Shown here: positions 21,951 through 31,972 of the stretch, piece after piece | Layout: every line of letters begins with the position of its first letter | Numbering within the stretch: the first letter of the stretch is position 1 | NCBI GenBank assembly: GCA_938034385.1 | Contig: CALHLC010000020.1 | Coordinates: forward strand, 1-32,473 | Length of the DNA: 32,473 nucleotides | Origin: an uncultured Bacteriovoracaceae bacterium | GTDB taxonomy: Bacteria > Bdellovibrionota > Bacteriovoracia > Bacteriovoracales > Bacteriovoracaceae | Direction: 5' to 3' | Position numbers and translations under genes: made by a program | Notes under the pieces: model-generated | Told to the model about the DNA's origin: nothing | Database searches by the model: none | The model's input: only the letters and a program-made list of their open reading frames with translations

Positions 21951-22169
21951 AGAAATCTCGATACTATTATGAAGTACCCATATTTTGATTTGGTATTCTA
22001 AAAACAAGATTATTGGGCAGAGATCACAAGTGAATAATTATCTTAATATTGTGTCTTTATTTTGGCACTCTTGAGGTTTAAAACAAAGAATTAGTAGTAG
22101 CTATGAGATGAGCAATATGTAAGTTCTTTGCTCAAGAAAAATATGCCTATTGCCGATATTATAAGAACT

Positions 22170-24371
22170 ATGAACAGATTAACTACAATTTTATTTCTTA
22201 TTTTTTTCCTAACTGGATGTATGGAGGGTGATACAAATGTTGGGGTAAATTATGCTAACTATAGAAAAGCATTTGAGCCTATTATGGGTTGTATGAATAA
22301 AAATGCAATAAATTATAAGAAAGATTTTGAAATAGAAGATGGAAGCTGTAATTTTGTTTGGTGTGAGCAGGAGGGATTTGATGAGACAAATACTGAGTAT
22401 GAAAAATCAATAGTTATTCCTTATTTAGAATCCTTAAAGTCAGTAGTTCATCATCATACAGGTGAAGGTGTTGAGAAACATTCTGGAGAATTAGTAAAAG
22501 ATGCTTGCTTTACTATTCTTGGTTGTATGAATAGAAAAGCATCGAATTTTAATTCATTGGCCAATAAAGAAAATGGGAAATGTGAATTCAAAGGTTGTCC
22601 TCTTTTGGATACTGAATTAGAAGCTGAGTTTGCAAAGTATAAAGAAGAATTTCCAGAAGTTGAATTAGATAATAACTGTCCTAGCTTTAGAGGGTGTATA
22701 GAGAAAAAAGCGATAAATTTCCAAAAGAATAAAAAACTTCCTAATAATACCTGTGTTTTTAAAGGTTGTCCTCAACTGGATGAAGCTTTAAAAAATGATT
22801 ATGCACGATATATTCTTGAGTTTCCTGATGCTAAGAAATTAAGAAATACATGTCCAAGTGTTACAGGTTGTATGAATAAATTGGCCTATAACTTTGATGA
22901 GAAAAATAAGATTGCAGATCATACATGTAAGTTTAAAGGGTGTCCGGCTTTAAATGAAGCTCTAGGTGAGGCATTTAAAGAGTATAAAACTGAATTCCCT
23001 AAGGCAGCAGAGCTTGAAAATACTTGTGACAAATTTACAGGATGTCTGGAGCCATTGGCGATGAACTTTGAAAAAGATAAAAAAATAGCTGATAAAAGCT
23101 GTGAGTTTAAAGGATGTACTCTTTTAGATAATAAGTTGAAAGTTGCTTATAATAAGTACAGAAAAAAGTTTCCTGCATCTAAAAAGATAATAAATACTTG
23201 TCCTTCTTTTAGAGGATGTTTAGATAAAAATGCCGTTAACTTTGAAAAGGATCAAAAACTTGAAAGTGGTAAATGCGATTTTTCTTGGTGCTCCAAGGTA
23301 GGGTTTGAACAAACAAATCAATTAATGCAACCCAAAGTTGATAAATATCTTGAGACTTTAAAGAATTTAAAAATTAATTATACCGGTACAATCAACAATG
23401 AGTTTAATTGTGGGAAAAAATTAGGTTGTATGATCTCAGAAGCCAAAAACTTTGATGCTATAGCACAAAAAGAAAATGGAACCTGTGGCTTTGAAGGCTG
23501 CCCTGTCTTTGATCTTGACTTAAGAGATGCTTATGAAGATTATAAAAAGAGATTTACAAAAGCAAAACTTCAAAATACATGCCCAGGTGAAAAAACGGAA
23601 ACATTTACTCAAAATGAGAGACCACATCTTGGAGTTTTATGGGTAATAGATAATTCAGGATCGATGGGAGATAATCAAGATAACCTTGCTAACAATTTTG
23701 ATTCATTTATTCGAGGATTCCTAGATAAAAACTTTAATTTCACAATGGGAATTACAACAACAGATAGTAAGCATAATACTCTCTCTATGATTAAGTTAAC
23801 CTCAAAAAAAGCTAGTGAAAATAAAGCACAGTTTATCAGTGATTTTAAATCTATGATTAAAGTAAAAATTGATGGAAGTGCAACTGAAAGGGGCTTACAA
23901 GGAGCTCATAATTTCTTGGCCACTCATGAGGATAGTTTACTCTCGACTCCTGAGTCACCTTTAGCAGTTATTTATGTTAGTGATGAATTTGATCAATCCT
24001 TAGGTAGTGTTGGCAGTCACCATGCTTCATTACTTACTAGAGTAAATAAGGCCTCTCATCTTCATGTAAGTTCAATTGTGGGAAGAACCTTTGCTAGATA
24101 TAATGAAATGGCAGATTTAACAAATGGATTAAAGTTAAATATTTTCGATACTGATTTTGCTAGTCATTTAAGTAAAATCTCTCAGGATCTAGTTAAACTT
24201 GTTGATTTATTTAAGTTAAAAAATAGACCATTTGAGCCTTCTTTAAAAGTATTGATTGATGGTCAAGAAGTTTCAAATTGGACATATAATAGTGTTAATA
24301 ACGCAATTGAGTTTCCAAATGCTCCTGCATTTAATTCAATTGTTGAAGTTAAATATTTGGTTAAAGAATAA
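22170..24371 (+). CDS. Cys-repeat and VWA-domain lipoprotein
   Basis: A large surface or periplasmic lipoprotein, 733 residues from the ATG at 22170 (MNRLTTILFLIFFLTGC, lipid Cys17); an in-frame ATG at 22143 is possible. Seven Cys-rich units follow, each starting GC(M/I/L) with a conserved A-x-N-[FY] and closing with C-x-F-x-[GW]C. They are separated by about 57-58 residues in the middle and by longer linkers after units 1 and 6. A VWA domain follows with the MIDAS motif DNSGSM and later IYVSDEFDQS. The VWA part (LGVLWVIDNSGSMGDNQDNL) matches a lipoprotein family frequent in myxobacteria and bdellovibrios. The Cys units resemble degenerate GCT-D-x-x-A-x-N-Y-type repeats. A role in adhesion or surface binding is inference. 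Its stop is one base from the opposing sdhB stop. Confidence 0.88.
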   Translation: MNRLTTILFLIFFLTGCMEGDTNVGVNYANYRKAFEPIMGCMNKNAINYKKDFEIEDGSCNFVWCEQEGFDETNTEYEKSIVIPYLESLKSVVHHHTGEGVEKHSGELVKDACFTILGCMNRKASNFNSLANKENGKCEFKGCPLLDTELEAEFAKYKEEFPEVELDNNCPSFRGCIEKKAINFQKNKKLPNNTCVFKGCPQLDEALKNDYARYILEFPDAKKLRNTCPSVTGCMNKLAYNFDEKNKIADHTCKFKGCPALNEALGEAFKEYKTEFPKAAELENTCDKFTGCLEPLAMNFEKDKKIADKSCEFKGCTLLDNKLKVAYNKYRKKFPASKKIINTCPSFRGCLDKNAVNFEKDQKLESGKCDFSWCSKVGFEQTNQLMQPKVDKYLETLKNLKINYTGTINNEFNCGKKLGCMISEAKNFDAIAQKENGTCGFEGCPVFDLDLRDAYEDYKKRFTKAKLQNTCPGEKTETFTQNERPHLGVLWVIDNSGSMGDNQDNLANNFDSFIRGFLDKNFNFTMGITTTDSKHNTLSMIKLTSKKASENKAQFISDFKSMIKVKIDGSATERGLQGAHNFLATHEDSLLSTPESPLAVIYVSDEFDQSLGSVGSHHASLLTRVNKASHLHVSSIVGRTFARYNEMADLTNGLKLNIFDTDFASHLSKISQDLVKLVDLFKLKNRPFEPSLKVLIDGQEVSNWTYNSVNNAIEFPNAPAFNSIVEVKYLVKE
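22287..23588 (+). repeat. seven-unit Cys-rich protein repeat
   Basis: Protein-level repeat inside the VWA lipoprotein gene. The second Cys of the GC start in each unit falls at residues 55, 133, 190, 248, 306, 364 and 434 (counted from 22128), so spacings are 78, 57, 58, 58, 58 and 70. Linkers after units 2, 3, 4, 5 and 7 share GC(P/T)-x-L/F-(D/N)...Y...FP...NTC. Linkers after units 1 and 6 are a different type starting WC-x(3)-GF-(D/E)-x-TN. The DNA has diverged, so this is an old duplication and not a recent tandem array. Confidence 0.85.
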
Positions 24372-28306: not shown

Positions 28307-28810
28307 ATGAGTAACGTTTTAACTTTTGTCTATGCATTTATGTTTATTCAAATATTTATGGTAGCTATAAATGATGTAAAATATCGAAAGATTTCCAATC
28401 AGTGGATGATCTTGAATATGACTTTATTTGTAGCTCTATTGTTTATTGCACCTGAGCACTATCAATTAACTACTGAAACGTTTTTTTATAGCTTAACCTT
28501 TTTACTAGTTGGCTTTGTTGGTTTTTTTCTAAAAATCATGGGACCAGGTGATTCTAAATATCTCTTCTCACTTTTTTTAGTCACTCCTTTAGTATGGCAT
28601 AACTCATTCTTTAGTGTACTTTTATACTCAACATGTATAATTGGTGGTTTTAGTATACTAACTCAATTAGCCCAAAATTATGAGAAAATAGCAGACTATG
28701 CGAAGGTAGGATATTCTAAAGGAATTAGAGAGTGCATGGGATCAAAATTTCCTTATGCTCCAGTGATTTTAATGTCATGGGCATGGATGGGACATCACCT
28801 GTATTTCTAG
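28307..28810 (+). CDS. cpaA: A24-family prepilin peptidase (CpaA/TadV-like)
   Basis: Inner-membrane aspartic protease that cleaves Flp prepilin leaders. The 167-residue size and about five to six helices fit TadV/CpaA, which lack the N-methylase domain of PilD. Catalytic aspartates are D23 (AINDVKYRKISN) and D82 in MGPGDSKYLF, the GxGD motif. The C-terminal KFPYAPVILMSW corresponds to the usual lPYG-A region, with Ala in place of Gly. GTAAAGAGGTTTGT precedes the ATG. It follows the pilin gene directly, and the protease gene begins 24 bases after its stop. Confidence 0.9.
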   Translation: MSNVLTFVYAFMFIQIFMVAINDVKYRKISNQWMILNMTLFVALLFIAPEHYQLTTETFFYSLTFLLVGFVGFFLKIMGPGDSKYLFSLFLVTPLVWHNSFFSVLLYSTCIIGGFSILTQLAQNYEKIADYAKVGYSKGIRECMGSKFPYAPVILMSWAWMGHHLYF

Positions 28811-28834: not shown

Positions 28835-29026
28835 GTGATTCATATATTCTTGATTTCTTTAATAACTATTAATCTTTACGGGATTGATCATCCCTTAAAA
28901 AACTGTAATAAAACAACATTATTAGATACTTCAAGTAAGATTGGTGAAGATAAAAATACTATCGATCCTAGGGTGCGCCAAGTAATTGAAACCATTCATA
29001 GCCAAAAATCTTATGGAACTTGCTAA
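28835..29026 (+). CDS. N-terminal fragment of the C1-type peptidase
   Basis: The part upstream of the stop: 63 residues with a signal peptide (about 1-16) and the motif QKSYGTC at the very end, so the catalytic Cys is the last residue. GTG start without a good Shine-Dalgarno, 24 bases after cpaA. As a stand-alone exported peptide it would lack His and Asn and could not be a protease. Confidence 0.4.
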   Translation: MIHIFLISLITINLYGIDHPLKNCNKTTLLDTSSKIGEDKNTIDPRVRQVIETIHSQKSYGTC

Positions 29027-30232
29027 TTGGCCTCTTTCTCAACAGAGCTAAATTATTTAATTCGTCGGAAATACAAAGAGTCTCAAGAAGTTTTATCATT
29101 TAATTATTTGCAATATATTTCAAAACAATGTGGGGTAAAAAGCTGTAGCTTAAAAGAGATGGATGAAGTCTTGCATGAAGGAAATTATTTAGATGATACG
29201 TTTAAAAAACTCGTCAAAATTGAAGATACTAATTTCAAGAAAACTGGCAGAGGCTTGTGTTATCAGCATTATTTAAAAGAAGTTGAGATGAATTCTCTTA
29301 GTACCAATGATCCAAGTCTATATTTTGCTCCGATTAAGATTATAAATTATTACCTTGAAAATGATAAAAATATTTCAAAAGTATTAGAGCAGTTTCCCTT
29401 TTTGAATACTCATAAATGTAAACAAGAGGAAAATAATAAGCTTTTAGCTTGTGCTTTAGATGATTATATAAGCTATTTTAATCCCCAAGCTCTTAAGGTT
29501 TGCTCTAGTGGAGCTATTTCAGAATTAATTAGTCGTGTTGATGAAATATTAGAAAATAAAAGTGATGAAAATATGTTTGATGTCTTTCAACCATTAATGG
29601 AAAAGTCACTTAATTGTGATGGAAATTTAAGTAAAGAGCCAATTTTAAGTGAAATGAAAAGTCATCATGGGGTTTTAAAGAAAATTAATGGTGAAGAAGT
29701 CATAGTAAAACCGAAGTTATTAAAAGAAATCGATAAACAATGTAGAGCAGCTTTTAAAGATAATTTTGATAAAGCTGACGCCTGCTCAAGTAAATTAAAA
29801 GAGCAAGCCTGTAGAGAGAAAAAAGGCTGTAGACCGATGTGGGACTTTTACGAAAATGCACTTTCTCACCCTAATGTTAATGCAAGAAGACCAATTACTA
29901 TCGGAGCAAGTATGAAGATCTTTAGACCTGTAGCCGATATTTTTGGATTTGTACGTGACCCGTTGGATGGTCATCACGCAATGGTTGCAATAGGAACAGC
30001 TACTTGTGAAAAGAAAAAGTGCTTATTATTACAAAATTCTTGGGGAAGTGATGTAATAAGTGAAGATAAGAATAAATGGGAAGATAGTTATAAACTAAGA
30101 AGTGTTTATCCTTATAAAATAGACTCAAATGGTAAAATGGACTATTCAAGAATGTGGGTATGTGGAGACGAGTTAATCAAGGAAAGCATAAAACAAATAA
30201 ATTATATTCAGAGCTACAGACCCTTACTTTAA
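29027..30232 (+). CDS. C-terminal fragment of the C1-type peptidase
   Basis: The part downstream of the stop, readable from a TTG at 29027. Residues 2-8 (ASFSTEL) continue the active-site helix of a papain fold. The catalytic His is in DGHHAMVAIG (about 315-323) and Asn337 in LLLQNSWG. Twelve or more cysteines are spread through the large insertion between them. Alone it has no signal peptide and no catalytic Cys, and no ribosome binding site before the TTG, so separate expression is unlikely. Confidence 0.4.
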   Translation: MASFSTELNYLIRRKYKESQEVLSFNYLQYISKQCGVKSCSLKEMDEVLHEGNYLDDTFKKLVKIEDTNFKKTGRGLCYQHYLKEVEMNSLSTNDPSLYFAPIKIINYYLENDKNISKVLEQFPFLNTHKCKQEENNKLLACALDDYISYFNPQALKVCSSGAISELISRVDEILENKSDENMFDVFQPLMEKSLNCDGNLSKEPILSEMKSHHGVLKKINGEEVIVKPKLLKEIDKQCRAAFKDNFDKADACSSKLKEQACREKKGCRPMWDFYENALSHPNVNARRPITIGASMKIFRPVADIFGFVRDPLDGHHAMVAIGTATCEKKKCLLLQNSWGSDVISEDKNKWEDSYKLRSVYPYKIDSNGKMDYSRMWVCGDELIKESIKQINYIQSYRPLL

Positions 30233-30283: not shown

Positions 30284-31972
30284 ATGAAATGTATGTTGAT
30301 ATTAATGCTTCTTCCATATCTCTGTTTTTCCTTATCAATTGAAAAGCAATGGAGTGAAGATTTTGAATTCTCATCAGAGGGTAAATGGGCAATAGAAAAT
30401 AGAAACAATCCATTTAAGTTTAACAATGCAGAATTAAGAGATACGATTTTAAAAGGAAAATTTCATGCTCTGAAATATCCTGTGAATGTTACACCGCTTC
30501 TTTTCCCTTATAGTGTTTTTGAAAAGGCCTTTGATGAAGCTCCTGTGAATTCTCCAGCTAGAAAATTAATCTATAAAATTTTGAAGCTAGGTAGCGGCTA
30601 TAAAACCAAAGAAGAGTTTTTTGAATATTCAGGACATATTCATTATCCAAAAAACGAAAATCAAAATTATTCTAAAATCCCTTTTCCTTCTGAAAAAAAA
30701 CGTGGACTTCCTATGGGGGGAACATTGATTCACAGGTATCAAGCCGAAGGTTTAACCTTTGGATGTGCTAGTTGTCACTCTGCAGATTTATTTGGGAAAA
30801 AAGTATTGGGATTAAGTGCTAGATTTCCAAAGGGCAATGACTTGTTCTTAGATGCAAAGAAAATGAAGAAAAATTATCGTCGATCAATTGGAAAATATAT
30901 CCTGGGAATGAGTGATGGAGAGTTGAAAATGATGGCCGATACACTTGAGACTCTTGATTGGGTACGAGCTAAAAAACCAGTAGTTTTAGGACTTGATACA
31001 TCTTTATCACAAGTAGGAGCGAGTCTTCATTATAGGCAAAAAGATGAATATGCTAGTAAGATAAAGCGTGAGGTCGCTGGTCCACATATTTTAGAAACTA
31101 AAGCTGCTGATAGTAAACCTGCTGTTTGGTGGAACTTAAAATATAAAACACGTTGGTTATCTGATGGTTCATTAGTAAGCGGAAATCCTGTTTACACGAA
31201 TTTCTTATGGAATGAAATTGGGAGAGGAACAGATCTTAAAGAGCTAGAAACTTGGATCGATCAAAATCAGTCTACGATTAAAGAGCTCACGACATCTGTT
31301 TTTTCAACTAAAGCTCCTAATTATCTAGATTTTTTTGATGAAAAAGAATTGAATTTGCATAAGGCCATGAGAGGTGAGGTGCAATATAAGAAATATTGTG
31401 AACGTTGCCATGGACAATATATTAAGAATTGGAGTGTTGATAAGGATTTAGAGTTTAAAAAACTAGTAAAAACAAAAGAAGTTCGTTATCACAAAAAAAC
31501 ACCTGTCGTGAATGTTGGGACAGACCCAGGACGTTTTGAAGGGATGAAGTATTTCTCGGATGATTTAAATCGCTTGGCAATACAAAAAAATAAATCAATT
31601 AAAGTACTTCCTCAAGTGGGATATGTTCCACCACCTTTGGTTGGAATTTGGGCTAGGTGGCCGTATTTTCATAATAATTCAGCTCCAAGCTTATGTGTCG
31701 TTTTGACCCAAAGTAGTAAGAGACCTAAGACGTATTGGGCAGTGAAAGCAAATGATCCTGATAAGGATTTCGATAAAGAATGTAATGGCTATCCTCTGCC
31801 GGCAAAAATTAGCAAAAAATGGAAGAAAAATAAAAAGTATTATTACGACACAGCTAAGGCCGGTATGAGAAATACAGGTCATGATAAGAAAATATTCGTT
31901 GATAAGTCAGGCAAGGAATATATGACAAAGTCACAAAAACTTGATTTAATCGAATTTCTCAAAACTTTATAA
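30284..31972 (+). CDS. dihaem cytochrome c, RoxA-like
   Basis: A 562-residue periplasmic protein with signal peptide (about 1-18) and two haem-binding motifs, CASCH at 161-165 and CERCH at 372-376. The C-terminal sequence GYVPPPLVGIWARWPYFHNNSAPSL (His463) follows the pattern Y-x-x-PPL-x-GIW-x-x-x-PY-x-HN-x-S-x-PSL of the rubber-oxygenase RoxA/dihaem peroxidase-like family, with a later R-P-x-x-Y/F. The large N-terminal part (to about 150) has no match that I can name. Family members include peroxidases and oxygenases, so the reaction is not predictable. No Shine-Dalgarno is obvious. The stop is only 11 bases before the tRNA gene. Confidence 0.82.
   Translation: MKCMLILMLLPYLCFSLSIEKQWSEDFEFSSEGKWAIENRNNPFKFNNAELRDTILKGKFHALKYPVNVTPLLFPYSVFEKAFDEAPVNSPARKLIYKILKLGSGYKTKEEFFEYSGHIHYPKNENQNYSKIPFPSEKKRGLPMGGTLIHRYQAEGLTFGCASCHSADLFGKKVLGLSARFPKGNDLFLDAKKMKKNYRRSIGKYILGMSDGELKMMADTLETLDWVRAKKPVVLGLDTSLSQVGASLHYRQKDEYASKIKREVAGPHILETKAADSKPAVWWNLKYKTRWLSDGSLVSGNPVYTNFLWNEIGRGTDLKELETWIDQNQSTIKELTTSVFSTKAPNYLDFFDEKELNLHKAMRGEVQYKKYCERCHGQYIKNWSVDKDLEFKKLVKTKEVRYHKKTPVVNVGTDPGRFEGMKYFSDDLNRLAIQKNKSIKVLPQVGYVPPPLVGIWARWPYFHNNSAPSLCVVLTQSSKRPKTYWAVKANDPDKDFDKECNGYPLPAKISKKWKKNKKYYYDTAKAGMRNTGHDKKIFVDKSGKEYMTKSQKLDLIEFLKTL

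What the first reader, a model, noticed from the sequence alone, without database searches (positions are those of the whole stretch)
28835..30232. Papain-like protease gene stopped by TAA immediately after its catalytic Cys codon
The TAA at 29024-29026 falls exactly between the catalytic Cys (TGC, 29021-29023) and the rest of the active-site helix, in one unbroken frame. Signal peptide, oxyanion Gln, Cys, His and NSWG are otherwise all intact across 465 codons with no other damage. A nonsense change at the one most telling position, with no decay elsewhere, suggests a very recent mutation, a sequencing error, or controlled stop readthrough that would make active enzyme rare. TAA is used as a normal stop by its neighbours, so general reassignment is excluded.
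Basis: partly seen in the sequence, partly recalled or inferred. Interest (0 to 1): 0.8.

Follow-up and report, generated by a model that had tools for sequence, protein, structure and literature searches.

The report
Protease gene with lone nonsense stop
A papain-like protease gene in a Bacteriovoracaceae-family bacterium carries one premature stop codon just after its active-site cysteine; three close relatives have an ordinary amino acid there, so this is most likely a recent inactivating mutation (or a sequence error), not a hidden control switch.

Summary
In detail: frame 28835-30232 is open except for one TAA at 29024-29026, directly after the Cys codon TGC. The gene is single-copy in its genome. 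All three congeneric genomes searched carry it at the same place, between an A24-type peptidase gene and a RoxA-like cytochrome gene, as an uninterrupted frame. The codon after the Cys there is Leu, Leu and Val. The stop is therefore private to this sequence, which speaks against conserved programmed readthrough. No tRNA with a stop-reading anticodon was found, TAA is the commonest ordinary stop, and no structure follows the stop. Of about 58 other orthologues checked, none has an interior stop. The gene shows no relaxed constraint (24 versus 33 private changes), so the stop is young. Most likely it is a recent nonsense allele yielding only a 63-residue fragment; a consensus error is the main rival and cannot be excluded without reads. 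The papain-like assignment is plausible (invariant Q, C, H, N; weak C1/C47 matches) but below curated cut-offs. Ordinary finding.

The parts
28835..30232 (+). Interrupted papain-like cysteine protease gene (single copy), 466 codons including both stops
   Evidence: intact orthologues in three congeneric genomes
28835..29026 (+). Upstream fragment expected to be translated: 63 residues with hydrophobic signal-like N terminus, ends at the catalytic Cys, then TAA
29021..29023 (+). Putative catalytic Cys codon TGC
   Evidence: Cys of the G-A/T-C motif is invariant in the four sequences
29024..29026 (+). Premature TAA; relatives have Leu (CTA), Leu (TTG), Val (GTG) at this codon
29027..30232 (+). 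Downstream 401-codon remnant frame with conserved His and Asn (NSWG), no further stop or frameshift; begins with a TTG codon directly behind the stop
28307..28810 (+). Conserved upstream neighbour, Peptidase_A24 (prepilin-peptidase-like)
   Evidence: Pfam; synteny
30284..31972 (+). Conserved downstream neighbour, RoxA-like / di-haem cytochrome c protein
   Evidence: Pfam, NCBIfam (below family cut-offs), synteny

Best explanation
This is a chromosomal gene for a probably exported papain-like cysteine protease of an uncharacterised subfamily seen mainly in one Bacteriovoracaceae-family genus. In the sequenced lineage it has acquired a single, recent point nonsense change in the codon after the catalytic Cys. 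Translation ends after 63 residues, so no active enzyme is made; the gene is a very young pseudogene or a null allele segregating in the population. Shown: the stop, its absence from relatives, single copy, no sign of decay, no suppressor tRNA found. Inferred: that the base is real and that loss of the protease is tolerated.
For: Intact orthologues at the same locus in all three congeneric genomes searched, with Leu/Leu/Val after the Cys. TAA lies a single substitution from several sense codons. A relative-rate count shows no excess of private changes in the window copy (24 against 33 in its sister with one outgroup; 6 against 8 at columns conserved in two outgroups). dN to G003 (0.22) is like that of other fast neighbours. 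A further stop would be expected after about 15 neutral substitutions in the remnant, so its absence fits a young stop. No stop-reading tRNA. Other orthologues checked are uninterrupted.
Against: No reads or second strain could be examined, so a consensus error is not excluded. The absence of decay is equally what an error would give. The relative-rate test has low power for very recent loss.
Confidence: 0.64

Rival explanations
1. The TAA is a consensus or assembly error, or a minority strain's base built into a composite assembly; the real population encodes an intact protease.
For: The genome is a 66-contig assembly whose named congeners are MAGs; the frame is otherwise intact and under undiminished constraint. 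The syntenic upstream neighbour gene in relative G001 has an apparent one-base frameshift, so base-level flaws may occur in such assemblies.
Against: It is a substitution, not an indel, and not in a homopolymer; none of about 58 other orthologues checked is interrupted, so the assembly is not generally error-ridden.
Confidence: 0.3
2. Programmed or leaky stop readthrough inserts a residue at TAA and makes a small amount of active protease.
For: The full frame remains open and constrained after the stop.
Against: Stop absent from all three relatives; no suppressor tRNA among the tRNAs found; no stable downstream RNA structure (z +1.47); TAA is the commonest normal stop here; no comparable case found in the sampled genome.
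Confidence: 0.03
3. The downstream frame is translated on its own by re-initiation at the TTG right behind the stop, giving a Cys-less protein with a non-catalytic role.
For: A TTG codon follows the stop directly and a 401-codon frame follows.
Against: Such a product would lack the export signal and the catalytic Cys while keeping the His and Asn; in relatives the two halves are always one frame and this position is an ordinary internal codon.
Confidence: 0.03

Closest known systems
Papain family cysteine peptidases (MEROPS C1, Pfam PF00112; cathepsins, ficin) and staphopains (C47, PF05543)
   Same: Order Q...C...H...NSWG conserved in four sequences; weak matches of the His/Asn half to C1/C47 profiles and to ficin/cathepsin K chains; low-confidence model matches mainly staphopain and cathepsins.
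   Different: All profile scores are below Pfam's curated cut-offs; about 320 residues, many of them Cys-bearing, separate Cys and His; no NCBIfam family.
Point-nonsense pseudogenes / null alleles in bacterial genomes
   Same: Single premature stop, intact remainder, stop private to one lineage.
   Different: Nothing distinctive except that the stop happens to lie next to the active-site Cys.

Membership tests
Papain-like cysteine peptidase (C1/C47-like) | Catalytic Cys, His, Asn and oxyanion Gln in order Q-C-H-N | tested here: met
   Codons checked in the window; Q, C, H and N columns conserved in three intact orthologues
Papain-like cysteine peptidase (C1/C47-like) | Profile score above the family's curated cut-off | tested here: not met
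   PF00112 best 18.8 bits against cut-off 20.7; PF05543 13.8 against 22.6
Papain-like cysteine peptidase (C1/C47-like) | Papain fold | tested here: inconclusive
   AlphaFold model pLDDT 48.8; best Foldseek hits are staphopain and cathepsins but at E 0.03 or worse
Nonsense pseudogene / null allele | Relatives have an intact frame with a sense codon at the site | tested here: met
   Three of three congeners
Nonsense pseudogene / null allele | Stop present in reads of the source population | not testable with these tools
   No reads available
Programmed stop readthrough | Stop conserved across related species with constrained downstream frame | tested here: not met
   Stop absent from all relatives
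Stop codon reassignment / suppression | tRNA with anticodon for UAA, or repeated in-frame TAA in conserved genes | tested here: not met
   No such tRNA; no interior TAA in about 58 other orthologues

The most novel reading that the evidence does not exclude
A lineage-specific leaky UAA placed between the catalytic Cys and the rest of the active-site helix keeps an exported protease nearly off, with rare readthrough giving active enzyme.
Probability: 0.02. Interest if true: 0.7.

Novelty: new member of a known kind. Interest (0 to 1): 0.12.

Why it matters
Mostly as a caution: a stop at a striking position in one genome assembly is not recoding unless relatives share it. The useful by-product is a small, uncharacterised family of probably exported papain-like proteases, found full-length here only in one Bacteriovoracaceae-family genus, in a conserved gene trio with an A24 peptidase and a RoxA-like cytochrome; this lineage may be a natural loss of it.

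Tried and rejected
Readthrough/recoding (no conservation, no suppressor tRNA, no downstream structure). General reassignment of TAA. Genome-wide decay: an intrinsic coding-potential scan was too weak in this AT-rich genome (it scored the window's own upstream fragment below zero), so same-frame neighbours were screened by Pfam (no domain spans a stop) and by orthology with G003 (the one other hit, L056/L093, is an antisense shadow frame). A backup copy in the genome (none). Viral relatives (none). Structure prediction gave a poor model, so its fold matches are only suggestive. A first genome-contig scan with the window protein alone found nothing; the alignment query named the relatives. A paper search returned nothing specific to this case.

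Full report
Observation. The frame 28835-30232 (+) is exactly as described: GTG start, hydrophobic signal-like N terminus...SQKSYGTC, TAA at 29024-29026, then LASFSTELNYLIRR... to NSWG and a terminal TAA, with no other stop. The finding is therefore real as sequence.

It is one gene. A search of the window's own genome (2.67 Mb, 66 contigs, 99.3% complete) finds a single copy. Among 59 close and more distant genomes and 129 genomes of the family, full-length relatives occur only in the three other members of the same genus: G003 (69% identity over the remnant), G002 (44%) and G001 (about 32%); one or two weak C-terminal matches lie in other genera (G016, G029). All three congeners have it as one uninterrupted frame (open frames of 466, 467 and 539 codons). 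Named records for these three are Bacteriovoracaceae MAGs. Gene order is conserved: an A24-type peptidase gene upstream and a RoxA-like cytochrome gene downstream.

The codon after the Cys. In the relatives it is CTA (Leu), TTG (Leu) and GTG (Val). The stop is thus private to the window's lineage and differs from several sense codons by one substitution; 201 of the gene's 465 codons are one step from a stop, so a nonsense change is easy to acquire. Its place next to the Cys is best read as coincidence noticed after the fact: a stop anywhere before the His/Asn half would inactivate the enzyme equally.

Age of the change. Using G002 as outgroup the window copy has 24 private changes and G003 33; with G002 and G001 agreeing, 6 and 8. 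There is no sign of relaxation. dN to G003 in the remnant is 0.22, like other fast genes of the block (0.19-0.21). Neutral drift would be expected to produce another stop after about 15 substitutions, 1.3% divergence. The stop is young, or is not real.

Readthrough and reassignment. The genome shows 33 tRNA matches; ARAGORN on their loci gives no anticodon for a stop codon (the weakest match, C63:3470, is not confirmed as a tRNA by ARAGORN). TAA ends 142 of 220 long frames in 413 kb sampled. The sequence behind the stop is less structured than its shuffles (z +1.47). Ten other same-frame neighbour pairs show no domain spanning their stop (two of the ten have no Pfam match and are uninformative). 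Among 60 orthologue pairs with G003 only the window gene is truly interrupted; the other hit is an antisense shadow frame. Programmed readthrough would have to be specific to this one lineage and gene.

What the protein is. The Q-C-H-NSWG order is conserved in all four sequences, but Pfam scores for C1 and C47 stay below the curated cut-offs and NCBIfam has no match. A profile of the family finds ficin and cathepsin K weakly, aligned over the His/Asn half. A four-sequence AlphaFold model of the intact G003 protein is poor (pLDDT 48.8); its matches are staphopain and cathepsins almost throughout, at E 0.03 or worse. Together this makes a papain-like protease likely, with a long insertion between Cys and His, but formal membership is not proven.

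Verdict. Recent nonsense null allele (0.64) or consensus error (0.30); recoding or functional re-initiation is unlikely. Reads would settle it. The finding is ordinary.

Noticed in passing
L015:1418-1916: The A24-type peptidase gene upstream of the protease appears split by a one-base frameshift in relative G001 (JAHDHG010000080.1), although intact in the window, G002 and G003.
   Followed up: partly
window 30284-31972: Conserved RoxA-like / di-haem cytochrome c protein always follows the protease; it scores well below the NCBIfam cut-offs for rubber dioxygenases, so its function is open.
   Followed up: partly
L037 and L038 (G000:C34:26667-26741 and G000:C37:52238-52312): tRNA-Cys genes with equal scores lie at the ends of two contigs of the own genome, probably one gene shared by overlapping contig ends.
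   Followed up: no
window 22128-24371: Large lipoprotein-like protein with many repeated Cys-rich units and a weak VWA-like domain, syntenic in G003 at 75% identity; function unknown.
   Followed up: no
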